64,000 bases of DNA, taken from NCBI GenBank assembly GCA_024280995.1, contig JAMXLM010000009.1:62001-126000 (forward strand), written 5' to 3'. Position numbers and translations under genes: made by a program. Numbering within the stretch: the stretch's first letter is position 1; each line of letters opens with the position of its first letter. Below, piece by piece: positions 10,388 to 56,832 of the stretch. Below the pieces are notes generated by a model. The model searched no databases and was not told where the DNA came from. It saw only the letters and a program-made list of their open reading frames with translations. The stretch comes from Candidatus Dormiibacterota bacterium (lineage in GTDB: Bacteria > Chloroflexota > Dormibacteria > Dormibacterales > Dormibacteraceae).

Positions 10388-10462
10388 TGGGGAGTGGCGC
10401 AACGGTAGCGCAGCTGACTCTGGATCAGAAGGTTGAAGGTTCGAATCCTTCCTCCCCAGCCA
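10388..10462 (+). tRNA. tRNA-Gln (anticodon CTG), CCA encoded
   Basis: A complete cloverleaf can be drawn. The 7-bp acceptor stem is TGGGGAG (10388-10394) with CTCCCCA (10452-10458), followed by discriminator G and an encoded CCA. The D arm is GCGCAACGGTAGCGC. The anticodon stem CTGA/TCAG encloses the loop CTCTGGA, with anticodon CTG at 10420-10422. The T arm contains GGTTCGAATCC. CTG reads the CAG codon, giving glutamine. A toxin-antitoxin pair follows about 30 nt downstream. Confidence 0.95.
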
Positions 10463-20097: not shown

Positions 20098-21120
20098 CTA
20101 AGCGAACTCGCTCATGAATTGCGCGAAATCCTCGCGCGACAAACGCAAGTCGTCCTCGCCCAGGTCTTTCAGGGGCCGGGCGGGCAGGTGCTCGGTGGTC
20201 ACGAAGTCGTCCATCTTCGTGTCGACGTAAAGCAATCCGGTGACCAGGTGTCCTTCGGCGCGCCCGTCTTCGATCACTCTGAGCGCGGCGCGGCGGTCGG
20301 TCGGATCGTGGTCCTCGCCGAGCTTCTTGAGGACGATGTGCGAGCCGTCATGCAGCCGCACCTCGCGCACGGTGCCGGGCTCGTAGTCGACCTGGACCTC
20401 TTCGAAGAAAGGAATGAACGAGACGTCCGCGATCGACTCCTCGTGGTCCTTGACCCAGCTGTAGCTCTTCGTCGACCCGTCGTGGTCGTTGAAAGTCACG
20501 CACGGCGAGATGATGTCCAGGATCGCGGTCCCGCGATGCGCGATCGCGGCCTTGAGCAGCGGCACCACCTGCTTGCCGTCGCCGCTGAAGGAGCGCGCGA
20601 CAAATGAGCAGCCGAGCGCGAGAGCAACCGCGCACGGGTCGATCGGCTGGAAAGTGTTCACGGCGCCTTTCTTCTGCACCGAACCGAGGTCGGCGGTGGC
20701 CGAGAACTGGCCCTTGGTCAGGCCGTAGGTGCCGTTGTCTTCGATGATGTAGGTGCAGTCGACGTTGCGTCGGATCATGTGCATGAACTGACCGAGTCCG
20801 ATGGACGCGGTGTCGCCATCGCCCGAGACGCCGAGCATGATCAGCTGTCGGTTCGCCAGGTGAGCCCCCGTCGTCAGCGCCGGCATGCGCCCATGCACAC
20901 CGTTGAATCCGTGAGCGGTCTCGACGAAGTAGGCCGGCGTCTTGGACGAGCAGCCGATGCCCGACATCTTGGCGAGCAGGTGCGGCTCGACTCCAAGCTC
21001 GTACAGCGCCTTGATCATGTGGTTCGTGATCGAGTTGTGGCCGCAGCCCGCGCACAGCGTTGTGGCCGCGCCCTTGTAGGCGTCGCGGGGAAGGCCGACT
21101 CGGTTGACGGTCGTGCTCAT
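20098..21120 (-). CDS. korB: 2-oxoacid:ferredoxin oxidoreductase, beta subunit
   Basis: 340-residue thiamine-diphosphate-binding subunit. It has CAGCGHNSI (Cys23, Cys26), the TPP motif GDGDTASIGLGQFMHMIRRN running to EDNGTYGLTKGQ, and a C-terminal extension. With the alpha/gamma subunit it oxidatively decarboxylates 2-oxoglutarate or a related 2-oxoacid to the acyl-CoA, reducing ferredoxin. Assignment to the 2-oxoglutarate branch (Kor) rather than pyruvate follows from the two-subunit fused gamma-alpha layout and is an inference. Its ATG overlaps the korA stop by 4 nt (ATGA). Confidence 0.9.
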   Translation of the reverse strand: MSTTVNRVGLPRDAYKGAATTLCAGCGHNSITNHMIKALYELGVEPHLLAKMSGIGCSSKTPAYFVETAHGFNGVHGRMPALTTGAHLANRQLIMLGVSGDGDTASIGLGQFMHMIRRNVDCTYIIEDNGTYGLTKGQFSATADLGSVQKKGAVNTFQPIDPCAVALALGCSFVARSFSGDGKQVVPLLKAAIAHRGTAILDIISPCVTFNDHDGSTKSYSWVKDHEESIADVSFIPFFEEVQVDYEPGTVREVRLHDGSHIVLKKLGEDHDPTDRRAALRVIEDGRAEGHLVTGLLYVDTKMDDFVTTEHLPARPLKDLGEDDLRLSREDFAQFMSEFA

Positions 21121-22901
21121 GCGGGGATCATCTCCTGCTGCTTGAGCGGCTCGACGATCGCGGCCGCCGGGATGGGTTGTCCGTTGTAGTGGCGGATCGA
21201 GCGCACACGGTCGACGAGTTGAGGCGGCAGCGCCAACCGCACCAGGTCGAACAGCTGGCCGTCGCGGTTCTGCTCGACGACGTAGACGTGCTCGTGGCGC
21301 GCGATGAACTCGACGACGTCGTCGCTCAGCGGCAGGGCGCGCACCCGCAGGTAGTCGACGTCGATCGATTCGCGAGCCTCGACCACCGCGGCGTGCGTGG
21401 AGCCGAAGGCGATCAGCCCGACCTTGCGGCCGGCCTCATCGATGACTGGCGCGGGGAGCGCGTGCCGAGCGGTCTCGAGCTTGCGCGCGAGCCGGTCCAT
21501 GTTACGGGCGTATGCGTCGGCGCCTTCGGTGTAACGCGCGCTCTCGTCGTGCCCTGAGCCGCGGGTGAAGTAGCCGGCGGCGGGGTGATCGGTGCCCGGC
21601 AGCGTGCGGTAGGTCACGCCATCGCCGTCGACGTCGCGATAGCGAGCCCATTCACCGGCGAGCTTCTCGAGGTCGTCCTTGCCAAGAACCTTGCCGCGGT
21701 CGAACGGCTTCTCCGGGTACTTGAAGGCGGGCGTCATCCAGAGGTTCATGCCGAGGTCGAGGTCCGACAGCACGAAGACCGGGGTCTGGAACCTGTCCGA
21801 GTAGTCGAATGCGTCGCGGCCGAACTCGTAGCACTCCTCGACGGATCCGGGCAGCAGCACGAGATGCTTCGTGTCGCCGTGGGAGAGGGTGTAGACGAAT
21901 CCGAGGTCTGCCTGGGACGTGCGCGTCGGCAGTCCGGTCGACGGGCCGATGCGCTGGATGTCGAAGATCACGACCGGAACCTCCGCGTAGTACGCAAGGC
22001 CGGAGAACTCCGCCATCAGCGAGATGCCCGGGCCTGAGGTGGATGTCATCGCCCGCGCCCCTGCCCACCCGGCGCCGATCGCCATGCCGACCGCGGCGAG
22101 CTCGTCCTCGGCCTGGACCACCGAGATCTTCTTCTCACCATCACCGTTCTCGCGGAAGCGGTCCGCGTACGCGATGACGTACTCGCAAAGAGACGAAGAC
22201 GGGGTGATCGGATACCACGCGACCACAGTCACGCCGCCCATCAACGCGCCCAGCGCTGCCGCCTGGTTGCCCTCGACCAGCACCTTGCCCTCGACCACGC
22301 CGGTCATCGGCTCGAGGTGGTAGTGGTCCTGCTTGGAGAAGTTGTCCTGCCAGTAGTCGAACCCGACCTTGATCGCATCGAGGTTCACCTGCACGGCCTT
22401 CGGCTTGGCGAGAAACTGCCGCTTCACTCCATGCTCCAGGGCCTCCCAGGGAATGCCGAGCACCCCTGCGACGACCCCGACGTAGATCATGTTCGCGAGC
22501 TGTTTGCGCAGCGTGTCGCTCTGGATCTTGGCCTTGGCCAGCTTCGCGAACGGCACCGGGTAGTAGGTCACGTCGGTGCGGGCGTCGGCGGTCGAGAACG
22601 CGTCCTCGTGGATGACGACGCCGCCCGGTCGCACGGTCTTCAGGTCCTCTTTCCAGGTTGCGACGTTGAAGGCGATCAGCACGTCGACCTTGTCCGAGCG
22701 CGCCATGTGGCCCTCCGGTGTGATCCGGAGCTGGTACCAGGTGGGCAGGCCCTCGATGTTGGACGGAAAGACGTTCTTCGGCGCGACCGGGATGCCCATG
22801 TGGAAGATCGCTCGGGTCAGGACCAGGTTTGCCGTCTGGCTGCCGGAGCCGTTGACTGTGGCGGCCTGGATTGTGAGGTCGTTGACGTTGGTCTGAATCA
22901 A
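21117..22901 (-). CDS. korA: 2-oxoacid:acceptor oxidoreductase, fused gamma-alpha subunit
   Basis: 594 residues. The N-terminal ~190 residues are the gamma domain (NGSGSQTANLVLTRAIFHMG, then PGGVVIHEDAF). The alpha domain follows, with EGNQAAALGALMGGVTVVAWYPITPSSSL, the pyrimidine-binding segment QAEDELAAVGMAIGAGWAG and TSTSGPGISLMAE. This fused arrangement is typical of KorA-type enzymes of Actinobacteria and Chloroflexi relatives. It forms the catalytic complex with korB downstream. ATG start near 22901; the gap upstream holds a foldback element shared with pntAA. Confidence 0.92.
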   Translation of the reverse strand: MIQTNVNDLTIQAATVNGSGSQTANLVLTRAIFHMGIPVAPKNVFPSNIEGLPTWYQLRITPEGHMARSDKVDVLIAFNVATWKEDLKTVRPGGVVIHEDAFSTADARTDVTYYPVPFAKLAKAKIQSDTLRKQLANMIYVGVVAGVLGIPWEALEHGVKRQFLAKPKAVQVNLDAIKVGFDYWQDNFSKQDHYHLEPMTGVVEGKVLVEGNQAAALGALMGGVTVVAWYPITPSSSLCEYVIAYADRFRENGDGEKKISVVQAEDELAAVGMAIGAGWAGARAMTSTSGPGISLMAEFSGLAYYAEVPVVIFDIQRIGPSTGLPTRTSQADLGFVYTLSHGDTKHLVLLPGSVEECYEFGRDAFDYSDRFQTPVFVLSDLDLGMNLWMTPAFKYPEKPFDRGKVLGKDDLEKLAGEWARYRDVDGDGVTYRTLPGTDHPAAGYFTRGSGHDESARYTEGADAYARNMDRLARKLETARHALPAPVIDEAGRKVGLIAFGSTHAAVVEARESIDVDYLRVRALPLSDDVVEFIARHEHVYVVEQNRDGQLFDLVRLALPPQLVDRVRSIRHYNGQPIPAAAIVEPLKQQEMIPA

Positions 22902-22956
22902 TTGGGGAGCGAGTCAGAAATTTTACGCGTGTGCAGGATCGGCCCTCGATTGCTTA

Positions 22957-23149
22957 GAGTCTTCCGGCGTCGGGTTGCGTAGCAGATTCGCGGCATTGGC
23001 GGCCGGAGCCAAGGAAAGGGTGGCGGGGCGAGGAGCGCATTTGTGATGCGCGACGACGCCACGCCGGCCCCTTGACGTCGGCTTCGGCGCCGAAGGCGCC
23101 CGGCCGCCCAGGGCGCGAAGATGCGCGCAATCTCGGCGACGGAAGACTC
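22957..23149. repeat. Foldback element, copy 1 (korA/pntAA gap)
   Basis: A 193-nt imperfect palindrome. Outer arms GAGTCTTCCG (22957-22966) and CGGAAGACTC (23140-23149) pair perfectly. Pairing continues through CGTCGGG with CTCGGCG, TTGCG (22975-22979) with CGCAA (23126-23130) and TTCGCG (22987-22992) with CGCGAA (23114-23119). An inner stem GGCGGCCGG (22998-23006) with CCGGCCGCC (23100-23108) closes two sub-hairpins. These are GTGGCG...CGCCAC (23020-23062), holding GCGCAT/ATGCGC, and the 14-nt palindrome CTTCGGCGCCGAAG (23082-23095). A second copy lies at 54954-55148. It ends 14 nt before the pntAA start. Confidence 0.8.
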
Positions 23150-23163
23150 GAGGTCGTCCAGTC

Positions 23164-24294
23164 GTGAAGGTGGGCGTGCCCAAGGAGATTGAGCCGGGGG
23201 AGCGGCGGGTGGCGCTCGTCCCTGACACCGCCAAGATGCTCGTCGCGGCCGGCCTCGAGGTCGGCGTCGAAGCCGGCGCGGGTGCGGCGGCCTACCTCAG
23301 CGACGACGCATTCACGCAGGCCGGCGCGACGGTTGCGGGGCGCGCGGGGTCGATGCTCCGCGACGCCGACGCGGTGCTCAAGGTGCAGGCGCCACGGGAG
23401 AGCGAGATCTCGCTGCTGCGGAAGGGCGCCGTGCTGATCAGCTTTCTCCAGCCCGCGACCCAGGGCGACATCGTCCGCTCGCTCGCAAGCCACGGGATAA
23501 CCGCCTTCAGCCTGGAGCTGCTGCCGCGCATCTCCCGCGCGCAGTCGATGGATGCCCTCTCGTCCCAGGCGTCGGCCGCGGGCTACAAAGCGGTGCTGAT
23601 GGCCGCGGATCGCATCGGCAAGCTCTTCCCGATGATGATGACGGCCGCCGGCACGGTGGCTCCGACACGAGTGCTCGTGATGGGCGCGGGAGTCGCCGGC
23701 CTGCAGGCGATCGCGACTGCTCGCCGCCTTGGTGCGGTCGTTTCCGCGTACGACGTCAGACCGGCGGTGAAGGAAGAGGTCTCGTCGCTCGGCGCGACCT
23801 TCATCGAGCTTCCGCTCGAGACGCAGGAGGGCGAGGGCGGCTACGCGCGCGAGCAGTCGGAGGACTTCTTGAAGAAGCAACGCGAGCTCATCGGTGAGCA
23901 CGTCGCGAAGTCAGACGTCGTGATCACCACTGCGGCAGTTCCCGGTCGCAAGGCGCCACTGCTCGTCACCGCGGACATGGTCCGAGGCATGCGGCCGGGC
24001 TCGGTCATCGTCGACCTCGCCTCCGAGACAGGCGGCAACGTCGAGCTGACTCAGGCGGGTAGGGACGTCGACGTCAACGGAGTCACTGTCATCGGCACCC
24101 GGAACGTCCCCTCGACCATGCCGCTGACGACGAGCCAGCTCTTCGCCCGCAACGTCGCGAACCTCCTACTTCACCTGGTCAAGAACGGCGCCGTGTCGCT
24201 CGACTTTGCCGACGAGATCACCAAGGGCGCTTGCGTGACCCACGGCGGCGAGATCGTCAACGAGCGCGCCAAGCAGACCCTGTCGGCAGCATGA
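23164..24294 (+). CDS. pntAA: NAD(P) transhydrogenase subunit alpha part 1 (NAD-binding)
   Basis: 376-residue cytoplasmic dI domain of the proton-translocating transhydrogenase, which moves hydride between NADH and NADP using the proton gradient. It starts VGVPKEIEPGERRVALVPDT and carries the Rossmann motif VLVMGAGVAGLQAIATARRLGA and the mobile-loop region ending TAAVPGRKAPLLV. The alpha subunit is split into two genes here, as in Rhodospirillum-type systems. GTG start. It leads the pntAA-pntAB-pntB operon and sits just downstream of the foldback element. Confidence 0.95.
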   Translation: MKVGVPKEIEPGERRVALVPDTAKMLVAAGLEVGVEAGAGAAAYLSDDAFTQAGATVAGRAGSMLRDADAVLKVQAPRESEISLLRKGAVLISFLQPATQGDIVRSLASHGITAFSLELLPRISRAQSMDALSSQASAAGYKAVLMAADRIGKLFPMMMTAAGTVAPTRVLVMGAGVAGLQAIATARRLGAVVSAYDVRPAVKEEVSSLGATFIELPLETQEGEGGYAREQSEDFLKKQRELIGEHVAKSDVVITTAAVPGRKAPLLVTADMVRGMRPGSVIVDLASETGGNVELTQAGRDVDVNGVTVIGTRNVPSTMPLTTSQLFARNVANLLLHLVKNGAVSLDFADEITKGACVTHGGEIVNERAKQTLSAA

Positions 24295-54949: not shown

Positions 54950-54953
54950 GGGC

Positions 54954-55148
54954 GATGTCCTATTCCGGGAGTGCCGACGCGTATGCGCGGCATCGGCGGC
55001 CGGAGCCAAGCAGAGGACGAGCACGCGAGGGAGCGCATCCCGTAGATGCGTGACCGAGCGCGCGCAGGAGTCGACGCCGGCTTCGGCGCCGAAGGCGCCC
55101 GGCCGCCCAGGCCAGCGGAGACGCGAGGCATCTCTGGGATAGGACATC
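54954..55148. repeat. Foldback element, copy 2 (menH/menD gap)
   Basis: A 195-nt imperfect palindrome filling almost the whole 206-nt gap. Outer arms GATGTCCTAT (54954-54963) and ATAGGACATC (55139-55148) pair perfectly. GTGCC (54971-54975) pairs with GGCAT (55127-55131), and CGCG (54978-54981) with CGCG (55122-55125). The inner stem GGCGGCCGG (54995-55003) / CCGGCCGCC (55099-55107) and the palindrome CTTCGGCGCCGAAG (55081-55094) are identical to copy 1. The mid hairpin GCGCAT/ATGCGT (55033-55051) is conserved with a G-U change. Both divergent genes get an AGGA motif from the arms. Confidence 0.8.
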
Positions 55149-55155
55149 CCATCGT

Positions 55156-56832
55156 ATGACTGACGTCGCGCAATCTTTCGCAGCCACCTTCGTCGACGAG
55201 CTCGCCGCGCAGGGCGTCGAGTTCGCGTGCGTGTCGCCGGGCTCGCGATCCGCACCGATTGCAATGGCGCTGCAGCGTCATCCGCGCATCAAGGTCCTTG
55301 TTCATATCGACGAGCGATGCGGCTCTTTCTTTGCGGTCGGGCTCGGAAAAGCGACAGGCAGGCCCGCGGTGGTGCTGTCGACGTCCGGCACCGCCGCCGC
55401 GGAGTTCCATCCCGCGGTGGTCGAGGCGTACCACTCCGGCACCCCGCTCATCGTCCTGACCGCGGACCGCCCGCCGGAGCTGCTCGACGTCGGCGCCAAC
55501 CAGGCAGTCGACCAGCGGCGGCTGTACGGGACCGCCGTGCGCTGGTTTTTCGACCCGGGCGTGCCTGTCGAAATCTCCAACGCTGCTCGGGTGTGGCGCC
55601 GCCTTGCCGCCCGAGCCGTCGCCGAGTCGGCCGCCGGTCCCGTGCACCTGAACCTTCCGTTCCGCGAGCCGCTGGTTCCTCCTCCCGGCCAGATCCCCGT
55701 GGCCGAGGAGTCACCCACGCAGGCCGCGACGGCCGGCCGACTGCTCCCCAACCAGGCGCAGGTCGCCTCGCTGGCCTCGGCCCTTCAGCGTTCGCAGCGA
55801 CCGCTGGTGGTGGCGGGCGAGATGCGCGACGGCGAACGGTTGGCGCCGGCGCTCAATCGCCTCGGCCTGCCGGTGCTGGCGGAACCGACCTCGCAGCTCC
55901 GCAGGCCCGAGACCGGAGGCGCCGTCGAGTCGTACGAGGCGCTCCTTCGCGCCGGATGGTCGCTGCAGCACGGGCCGGACCTCGTTCTGCGCCTCGGCGG
56001 AACGCCGACGTCGCGCGTCCTCAATCGCTGGCTGGCGGCAGCCGCCGCGCCGACGTTTCTCGTCGACCCGACCCAGGCCTGGAGGGACGAGGACAGCGTG
56101 GCCACGAGCGTCTTTGCGTGCGAGCCGCTGCCCCTGCTCGAGGCCCTACCCACCATTGACCGGTCGACCTGGCGCGAGCAGTGGATTGGCGCCGGCAAGC
56201 GCGCGTCCGCCGCCATCGCGGCCACGCTCGTGACCACGCCGGTTCACGAGGGCCACATCGTCAAGGCGCTCGCCAGTCGCATGCCCGATCCGGGCCAGGT
56301 GTTCGTCGGCTCCAGCATGCCGATCCGCGCCGCCGACGGCTTCTGGCCGCTGGCGCGCACCCAGCAGCGCTTCTACGGCAACCGCGGCGCGAGCGGGATC
56401 GACGGGCTGGTGTCGAGCGGCCTTGGCGTCGCGACCGCGCGCAACCCTTCTCCGACGGTGCTCCTGCTCGGCGACCTTTCGCTCTATCACGACATGAACG
56501 GCCTGTGGGCGCTGCAGCGCCACGGGATCAAGGCGACGCTGGTTGTCTGCGACAACAACGGCGGCGGGGTCTTCAACTTCCTGCCGCAGTCCGAGCATCC
56601 CGACGTGTTCGAGGAGATCTTCGCCACCCCCCTCGGCCTCGACCTGTCTCAGGTGGCCCGACTCTACGGGCTCGTCTACAGCCCGGTCAGCGACCGTTCA
56701 GGCCTCGAGCCCGCGATCGCCGACGCCATCGCCGCTCCGACGCCGACCATGGTCGTGGTCCGGTTCAAGCGGGAGGACAGCGTCAGCGGCCATCGGTTGT
56801 GCTGGGAGGCGGCAGCCTCAGCCCTCAAGTAG
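55156..56832 (+). CDS. menD: SEPHCHC synthase (MenD)
   Basis: 558-residue thiamine-diphosphate enzyme joining isochorismate and 2-oxoglutarate in menaquinone synthesis. It has VEFACVSPGSRSAPIAMALQ, TSGTAAAEFHPAVVEAYHSG, and PLIVLTADRPPELLDVGANQ at the N-terminus and the TPP motif GDLSLYHDMNGLWAL with DNNGGGVFNFLPQ at the C-terminus. ATG start 8 nt after the foldback arm. Its 3' end overlaps the convergent hydrolase by 15 nt. Confidence 0.96.
   Translation: MTDVAQSFAATFVDELAAQGVEFACVSPGSRSAPIAMALQRHPRIKVLVHIDERCGSFFAVGLGKATGRPAVVLSTSGTAAAEFHPAVVEAYHSGTPLIVLTADRPPELLDVGANQAVDQRRLYGTAVRWFFDPGVPVEISNAARVWRRLAARAVAESAAGPVHLNLPFREPLVPPPGQIPVAEESPTQAATAGRLLPNQAQVASLASALQRSQRPLVVAGEMRDGERLAPALNRLGLPVLAEPTSQLRRPETGGAVESYEALLRAGWSLQHGPDLVLRLGGTPTSRVLNRWLAAAAAPTFLVDPTQAWRDEDSVATSVFACEPLPLLEALPTIDRSTWREQWIGAGKRASAAIAATLVTTPVHEGHIVKALASRMPDPGQVFVGSSMPIRAADGFWPLARTQQRFYGNRGASGIDGLVSSGLGVATARNPSPTVLLLGDLSLYHDMNGLWALQRHGIKATLVVCDNNGGGVFNFLPQSEHPDVFEEIFATPLGLDLSQVARLYGLVYSPVSDRSGLEPAIADAIAAPTPTMVVVRFKREDSVSGHRLCWEAAASALK

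What the first reader, a model, noticed from the sequence alone, without database searches (positions are those of the whole stretch)
22957..23149. Foldback element: conserved core, outer arms that change but still pair in a second copy
The core is nearly identical between 22998-23108 and 54995-55107: inner stem GGCGGCCGG/CCGGCCGCC, palindrome CTTCGGCGCCGAAG and a GCGCAT mid-hairpin. The outer arms differ (GAGTCTTCCG/CGGAAGACTC against GATGTCCTAT/ATAGGACATC), yet each is perfectly self-complementary. Overall lengths are 193 and 195 nt. Paired changes like this argue for selection on structure, or gene conversion between arms, rather than random drift. I do not recognise it as a known riboswitch or REP family.
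Basis: seen in the sequence. Interest (0 to 1): 0.72.

Follow-up and report, generated by a model that had tools for sequence, protein, structure and literature searches.

The report
Mobile hairpins parked before start codons
The two hairpins belong to a family of roughly 200-letter mobile DNA elements in a group of soil bacteria; many copies sit in the few letters just before a gene begins, one of them before a ribosomal-protein gene, and they keep their folded shape while their letters change.

Summary
The two hairpins (window 22956-23151, 54952-55151) are copies of a high-copy family: 54 places were collected in this 3.0-Mb Dormibacteria genome, and 37 of 42 genomes of the order have matches. 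Covariation is strong: 29 of 62 pairs change on both sides, reached by 0 of 500 shuffles.

The family is mobile: eleven filled sites of this genome are empty in congeners. Placement is striking. In 64 of 127 elements one end lies -1 to 3 nt from a called start codon; at promoters the -10 box TANNNT is left at the far end, so the element sits between -10 box and start codon. In operons it sits between stop and start, once between rpsS and rplV. No target duplication of 3 bp or more stands out. The fold is selected on the element's own strand whatever the host gene's direction. Four mobiliser families searched are absent from this genome.

Best reading: a non-autonomous hairpin moved as a folded single strand by an unknown enzyme, tolerated because its closed base brings 5' end or stop codon beside the start codon. 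Both steps are inferred.

The parts
22956..23151 (+). Mobile foldback element, copy 1 (short mid-hairpin form); lies between divergent genes, 54 nt from the called start on the left and 12 nt from the GTG on the right
   Evidence: covariance model 192.5 bits; fold; gene distances
22957..22966 (+). Outer 5' arm of copy 1, GAGTCTTCCG
   Evidence: sequence
23140..23149 (+). Outer 3' arm of copy 1, CGGAAGACTC
   Evidence: sequence
22998..23108 (+). Conserved core of copy 1: inner stem, mid-hairpin and side hairpin
54952..55151 (+). Mobile foldback element, copy 2 (variant of the central helix); 2 nt from the called start of the left gene and 4 nt from the ATG of menD
   Evidence: covariance model 130.6 bits; fold; gene distances
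54954..54963 (+). Outer 5' arm of copy 2, GATGTCCTAT
   Evidence: sequence
55139..55148 (+). Outer 3' arm of copy 2, ATAGGACATC
   Evidence: sequence
21117..22901 (-). Gene left of copy 1 (looks like a 2-oxoacid:ferredoxin oxidoreductase subunit; name from recall)
   Evidence: open reading frame and own gene caller
23164..24294 (+). Gene right of copy 1: alanine dehydrogenase / NAD(P) transhydrogenase alpha type
   Evidence: PF01262, PF05222
54107..54949 (-). Gene left of copy 2 (alpha/beta hydrolase-like; name from recall)
   Evidence: own gene caller
55156..56832 (+). Gene right of copy 2: thiamine-diphosphate enzyme, MenD type (the name MenD from recall)
   Evidence: PF02776, PF02775, PF16582

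Best explanation
The hairpins are copies of a non-autonomous mobile element of Dormibacteria: about 198 nt, GC-rich, one foldback over its whole length. SHOWN here: dozens of copies in this genome; insertion into sites that are empty in congeners; a sharp structural end, terminal pairs near 100% paired and flanks at background; frequent placement in the few nucleotides before a start codon, either between -10 box and start or between stop and start; no target duplication of 3 bp or more that stands out; structural constraint on the element's own + strand whatever the direction of the neighbouring gene. INFERRED: it is recognised and moved as a folded single strand (ssDNA or RNA) by an enzyme supplied in trans and not yet identified, entering where DNA is open, for example the transcription bubble. 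INFERRED, less sure: it is tolerated there because the closed hairpin holds the transcript's 5' end, or the preceding stop codon, beside the start codon, so that leaderless initiation or stop-start coupling still works.
For: Copies: 44 BLAST and 78 model matches in the own genome, partial and opposite-strand matches included. Empty sites: ten own sites, each empty in the 2-9 relatives aligned, and the rpsS-rplV site contiguous in the 15 congeners that match. Placement: 64 of 127 elements have an end -1 to 3 nt from a called start; TANNNT 2-6 nt outside the distal end in 21 of 64, against 6 hits over the next 38 positions together. Gene pairs: convergent 3 of 125 against 42 of 283, divergent 39 of 125 against 26 of 283. 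Ends: pairing 0.41, 0.82, 0.98, 0.99, 0.99, 1.0 at successive positions in 123 elements. Strand: G-U against A-C 47:20, 100:33 and 36:13 in the three orientation groups; the reverse-complement fold is weaker and even, 15:15. Duplication: best 3-base match 6 of 123, chance 2.5. Copies stand before L22, UvrB, chorismate synthase, coaBC-type and DinB-type genes.
Against: The mobiliser was not found. 63 of 127 elements are not strictly next to a called start, copy 1 among them, and 17 of 39 divergent ones are not. Only 1 of 28 antisense operon cases has a -10 box; adjacency in tight operons could be survivorship. Orthologous filled sites show broken pairs as well as compensated ones (16 broken by one side, 5 broken with two sides changed, 15 compensated on both sides; 8 comparisons, not independent), so constraint in place is incomplete. 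If the fold mattered as host mRNA, antisense copies should show A-C over G-U, and they do not, which speaks against host translation as the main selective force. Starts come from a simple codon-usage caller, uncurated. The genomes are MAGs. A 1-2 nt duplication is not excluded (2-base matches 17 of 123 against 5.2 at one of 42 offset pairs, inside the arms).
Confidence: 0.6

Rival explanations
1. An ordinary MITE: a deletion derivative of an insertion sequence moved by a DDE transposase that reads its terminal repeats; placement near starts only reflects gaps that tolerate insertion.
For: Semi-conserved ends GAGTGTC/GACACTC; non-coding, high copy, between genes; empty sites.
Against: No duplication of 3 bp or more stands out. 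Ends vary in sequence but not in pairing. Strand-specific constraint. IS630-type transposase in 6 of 42 and IS110-type in 13 of 42 genomes of the order, neither in the own genome; other DDE families were not searched, and MAGs often lose insertion sequences.
Confidence: 0.2
2. A cis-regulatory RNA leader or riboswitch kept in place for the gene behind it.
For: Conserved internal loops, covariation, position just before start codons.
Against: Neighbouring genes are unrelated; copies lie in both orientations, 28 of the 64 strict cases being antisense in an operon; the sites are empty in congeners; no Rfam match.
Confidence: 0.06
3. The arms stay complementary through hairpin-templated repair or conversion between arms, without selection.
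For: Arms are copy-specific and nearly perfect; tips are exchanged between copies at orthologous sites; 15 two-sided changes in 8 orthologous comparisons.
Against: G-U exceeds A-C on one strand in every orientation group; internal mismatches such as the tandem G.A persist in the core; one-sided breaks also accumulate.
Confidence: 0.09

Closest known systems
YPAL/RU-2, Yersinia palindromic sequence (168 bp)
   Same: Not A+T-rich, palindromic, non-coding, between genes, empty and filled sites known (passages of PMC2229807)
   Different: YPAL gives target duplications of 3-26 bp and targets areas of dyad symmetry; here no duplication of 3 bp or more stands out and sites are -10/start or stop/start gaps
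ERIC/IRU (127 bp) and Correia/NEMIS
   Same: Small non-autonomous foldback repeats between genes, transcripts able to fold; Correia is reported to lie immediately upstream of genes
   Different: Those have TA termini, TIRs and target duplications and are described as A+T-rich; this family is about 70% GC, without a duplication that stands out, and with pairing kept while the sequence varies
REP/BIME with RAYT, and IS200/IS605 (recalled)
   Same: Recalled: hairpins handled as single strands, insertion without duplication
   Different: The Y1 transposase PF01797 is in 1 of 42 genomes of the order, one without this element
Translational bypassing hairpins, e.g. phage T4 gene 60 or byp elements of yeast mitochondria (recalled)
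   Same: An inserted hairpin that might be passed because its base joins the two flanks
   Different: Here the insert lies before a start codon or between two genes, not inside a reading frame; passage is untested

Membership tests
Bacterial MITE moved by a DDE transposase | Small, non-coding, terminal inverted repeats, multi-copy | tested here: met
   about 198 nt foldback, 54 places in the own genome
Bacterial MITE moved by a DDE transposase | Target-site duplication | tested here: not met
   Best 3-base match 6 of 123 against 2.5 by chance; no 8- or 9-base match. A 1-2 nt duplication is not excluded
Bacterial MITE moved by a DDE transposase | Ends shared with a resident insertion sequence | not tested
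   Only PF13358 and PF01548 were searched, both absent from the own genome
REP/RAYT or IS200/IS605-derived element | Y1 (HUH) transposase in the genome | tested here: not met
   PF01797: 0 in the own genome, 1 of 42 in the order; drafts may miss genes
Retroelement-derived RNA | Resident reverse transcriptase | tested here: not met
   PF00078: 0 in the own genome, 9 of 42 in the order, 8 over the cut-off
Known structured RNA (Rfam) | Match to a curated family | tested here: not met
   Window at gathering scores: one tRNA only; L003, L008, L020 at E<=5: none
Riboswitch or other cis-regulatory leader | Related genes behind it, in one orientation | tested here: not met
   Unrelated genes, both orientations
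Translational bypass hairpin | Ribosome passes the hairpin without decoding it | not testable with these tools
   Geometry only

The most novel reading that the evidence does not exclude
A new class of mobile element that travels as a folded single strand, enters open DNA at transcription start sites and stop/start junctions without duplicating its target, and is silent to the host because its hairpin base re-joins promoter 5' end or stop codon to start codon: an insertion that the expression machinery reads across. The outer arms can then change in sequence as long as they close.
Probability: 0.28. Interest if true: 0.92.

Novelty: new variant of a known kind. Interest (0 to 1): 0.73.

Why it matters
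Small palindromic repeats are common in bacteria, but how most of them move and why they are tolerated is open; the 2007 review says there is no experimental support yet for movement by transposases (passage). This family has empty sites, strand-specific covariation, no duplication that stands out, and copies lodged next to start codons, one of them in the ribosomal-protein operon that holds L22. It makes two questions testable: can a closed hairpin be invisible to leaderless or coupled translation, and what enzyme outside the searched HUH, reverse-transcriptase, IS630 and IS110 families moves hairpins?

Tried and rejected
Rejected: known RNA family; riboswitch regulon; resident RAYT/IS200, reverse transcriptase, IS630 and IS110 in the own genome. 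No formal test of enzyme presence against copy number across genomes was made. Arms copied from host flanks: pairing outside the ends is at background, 0.31-0.43. Outermost pairs from minimum-energy folds were useless because weak flank pairs confuse them. Shine-Dalgarno: a loose 4-letter motif occurs in 10 of 64 adjacent cases and 14 of 63 window genes, so it does not separate the two. The scan of viral contigs with one 22-letter pattern gave 0. Literature, search listings only: Dormibacterota + inverted repeat 0 papers; leaderless + MITE + start site + bacteria 0; Dormibacter + leaderless 1, a soil co-assembly paper, abstract start seen; palindromic element + start codon + mobile + hairpin + bacterial genome 0. 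Searches listed general MITE papers; I saw passages of two (PMC2229807, PMC10969869). Nothing on this family was found in those searches; subscription journals and preprints are mostly not held.

Rows left out. The 127-element set has 54 own places (four under 150 nt: L168 second place, L177, L178, L036) and 73 from relatives. Own places left out: L027, L035, L039, L040 (half, partial or very weak). From relatives L068 and L089 (partial) and loci reached twice under two names were dropped by hand, and two as identical sequences. Searches use 123 (150 nt or longer). One search kept 38 of 102 and 93 of 150 aligned rows; one search used 111 distinct ones. The second, ~181-nt set was aligned but not given its own covariation test.

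Full report
CHECK. Core and inner arms are shared, the outermost arms differ yet pair.

FAMILY. The window lies in contig C9 of a 3.02-Mb draft genome in 46 contigs. BLAST with copy 1 gives 44 matches there, some of them pieces. A covariance model R1 from 19 copies gives 78 matches at E<=1; many are the opposite strand of the same copy, since the element is a foldback. I worked with 54 own-genome places and 73 from relatives. A 22-letter core pattern in the genome-contig collection (84,980 species) gave 63 stretches, all with record titles naming Chloroflexi or Dormibacterota/Dormibacteraeota MAGs. By DNA query 34 of 42 genomes of the order, 41 of 110 of the class and 16 of 301 drawn from the phylum have it, one weakly outside the class. 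By the model, 37 of 42 in the order at E<=1e-6, 0-52 matches each, 50 in the own genome.

ANATOMY. Consensus about 198 nt: outer arms GAGTGTC.../...GACACTC; an inner part CAGATTCG/CGAAGATG that reads as a helix with a tandem G.A mismatch; the stem GGCGGCCGG/CCGGCCGCC; purine-rich internal loops; a mid-hairpin; a side hairpin. A second own-genome set of about 181 nt (GAGAGATTCGG.../...CCGAAGATCC) shares the layout. On 19 copies 94.4% of cells pair (shuffles 88.0 +/- 0.4; slid controls 36-44%) and 29 of 62 pairs change on both sides (10.6 +/- 2.0; slid 6-11); 0 of 500 shuffles reach either. In 123 elements pairing goes 0.41, 0.82, 0.98, 0.99, 0.99, 1.0 inward from the end and stays 0.73-0.95 to position 13; outside it is 0.31-0.43. 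The register was picked on positions 1-7, but 121 of 123 share one register.

STRAND. At columns with a Watson-Crick consensus, G-U cells outnumber A-C cells 47:20 beside same-direction genes, 100:33 beside opposite-direction genes and 36:13 in the rest. If host mRNA were the selected molecule, the second ratio should turn over. It does not. A consensus fold of the reverse complement of a sequence-only alignment is weaker (-59.4 against -90.5 kcal/mol) and even (15:15), against 31:13 on the + strand. So the + strand of the element itself, RNA or ssDNA, is what was selected. The rows were fitted to the model, which leans towards its structure; the 31:13 count was not.

PLACEMENT. Genes were called with a codon-usage script trained on the window. 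In 64 of 127 elements one end lies -1 to 3 nt from a called start codon. TANNNT stands 2-6 nt outside the distal end in 11 of 15 (same-direction gene, divergent neighbour), 6 of 13 (same-direction, operon), 1 of 1 (neighbour unknown), 2 of 7 (antisense, divergent) and 1 of 28 (antisense, operon); positions 7-44 hold 6 hits together. Window genes show it mainly 6-10 nt before the start (11 of 63), as expected of leaderless genes (motif and meaning recalled). Inside the element, within 0-14 nt of the start, it occurs once in 64. So at promoters the element separates -10 box and start codon. In tight operon junctions (other end -8 to 3 nt from the upstream stop) 25 are antisense and 5 same-direction; the antisense end often supplies a TAG stop (seen by eye). 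Convergent gene pairs carry 3 of 125 elements against 42 of 283 neighbouring pairs (p 1e-4), divergent pairs 39 of 125 against 26 of 283 (p 1e-7). Against a strict rule: copy 2 lies 2 and 4 nt from two divergent starts, but copy 1 is 54 and 12 nt away, and 17 of 39 divergent elements are not strictly adjacent. Tight operon sites may be survivorship; the promoter sites are less easily so, because insertion upstream of a promoter should be at least as harmless.

MOBILITY. Joined flanks of ten own sites were searched in 17 genomes of the genus; all 17, the own one included, match. At each of the ten sites the relatives that I aligned (2-9 per site) show continuous promoter or junction sequence without the element. 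One ~181-nt copy lies between the stop of rpsS (named from recall) and the GTG of the L22 gene (PF00237), 2 and 1 nt away. That junction matches in one contiguous piece in 15 congeners; the sixteenth, G013, had no match. Of 15 tried, 11 were aligned, one of them misplaced by my anchor; the ten good ones show a short gap and no element. Other copies precede UvrB, chorismate synthase, coaBC-type, DinB and methionine-synthase-type genes. Of seven groups of related filled sites, six share flanks on both sides and one (L085/L087) shares only the left half, as if recombined. In four groups the mid-hairpin switches between short and long forms, and in six elements a nested hairpin of about 40 nt sits in the side hairpin. 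Among eight comparisons of orthologous copies, 15 pairs changed on both sides and still pair, 10 changed on one side and still pair, 16 were broken by one side, 5 with two sides changed: structure is kept in place only in part. No end match of 3 or more bases clearly exceeds chance (best 6 of 123 against 2.5); a 1-2 nt duplication is not excluded.

WHAT MOVES IT. Y1 transposase (PF01797) is in 1 of 42 genomes, reverse transcriptase (PF00078) in 9, IS630-type (PF13358) in 6, IS110-type (PF01548) in 13; the own genome, 94% complete, has none of the four. Other transposase and recombinase families were not searched. These are MAGs, from which insertion sequences are easily lost, so absence is weak evidence.

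MECHANISM. No duplication that stands out, structure over sequence at the ends, and strand-specific selection point to recognition of a folded single strand; entry at transcription bubbles would explain the promoter sites. For tolerance: in the strict cases of 150 nt or more, the hairpin base is 0-4 nt (28 sense) or -1 to 4 nt (33 antisense) from the start codon (cases had been picked for adjacency). A closed hairpin would thus hold the transcript's 5' end, or the previous stop codon, beside the start codon. SD-like motifs are no help in telling: 10 of 64 cases, 14 of 63 window genes. All of this paragraph beyond the distances is inference, and the strand result says that host translation is not the main force shaping the fold. 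A DNA cruciform restoring the -10 to start spacing is an alternative form of the idea.

KNOWN KINDS. Closest are YPAL, ERIC and Correia repeats (passages of PMC2229807 and PMC10969869). The family fails the duplication test of MITEs at 3 bp or more and lacks the HUH enzyme of REP/IS200 systems. Four literature searches found nothing on it. I call it a new variant of small palindromic mobile repeats, with a real chance of being more.

Noticed in passing
L110, L113, L126, L100, L127, L087 (side-hairpin tip): A nested hairpin of about 40 nt containing GGGGTCCCCGCG sits in the loop of the side hairpin; a similar GGGGTCCCCGCG stretch makes the long mid-hairpin form. It may be a smaller element that inserts into hairpin tips.
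   Followed up: partly
L164-L173, L034:2079-2263 (own genome): A second set of about 180-185 nt foldbacks, 24-64 model bits in most, with the same layout and the same habit of standing next to starts and stops.
   Followed up: partly
L034 and L037: Two elements on one contig about 540-590 bp apart, around one short stretch; chance or a composite unit.
   Followed up: no
L085 and L087: Two genomes share the left flank and left half of the element exactly but have different right halves and right flanks, as if elements had recombined and rearranged the genome.
   Followed up: no
L168:1505-1686 and L169:1521-1702: Two nearly identical copies of the second set, with similar left flanks, at two places in the own genome: a recent duplication.
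   Followed up: no
window 10388-10459: A tRNA gene, the only Rfam match in the window.
   Followed up: no
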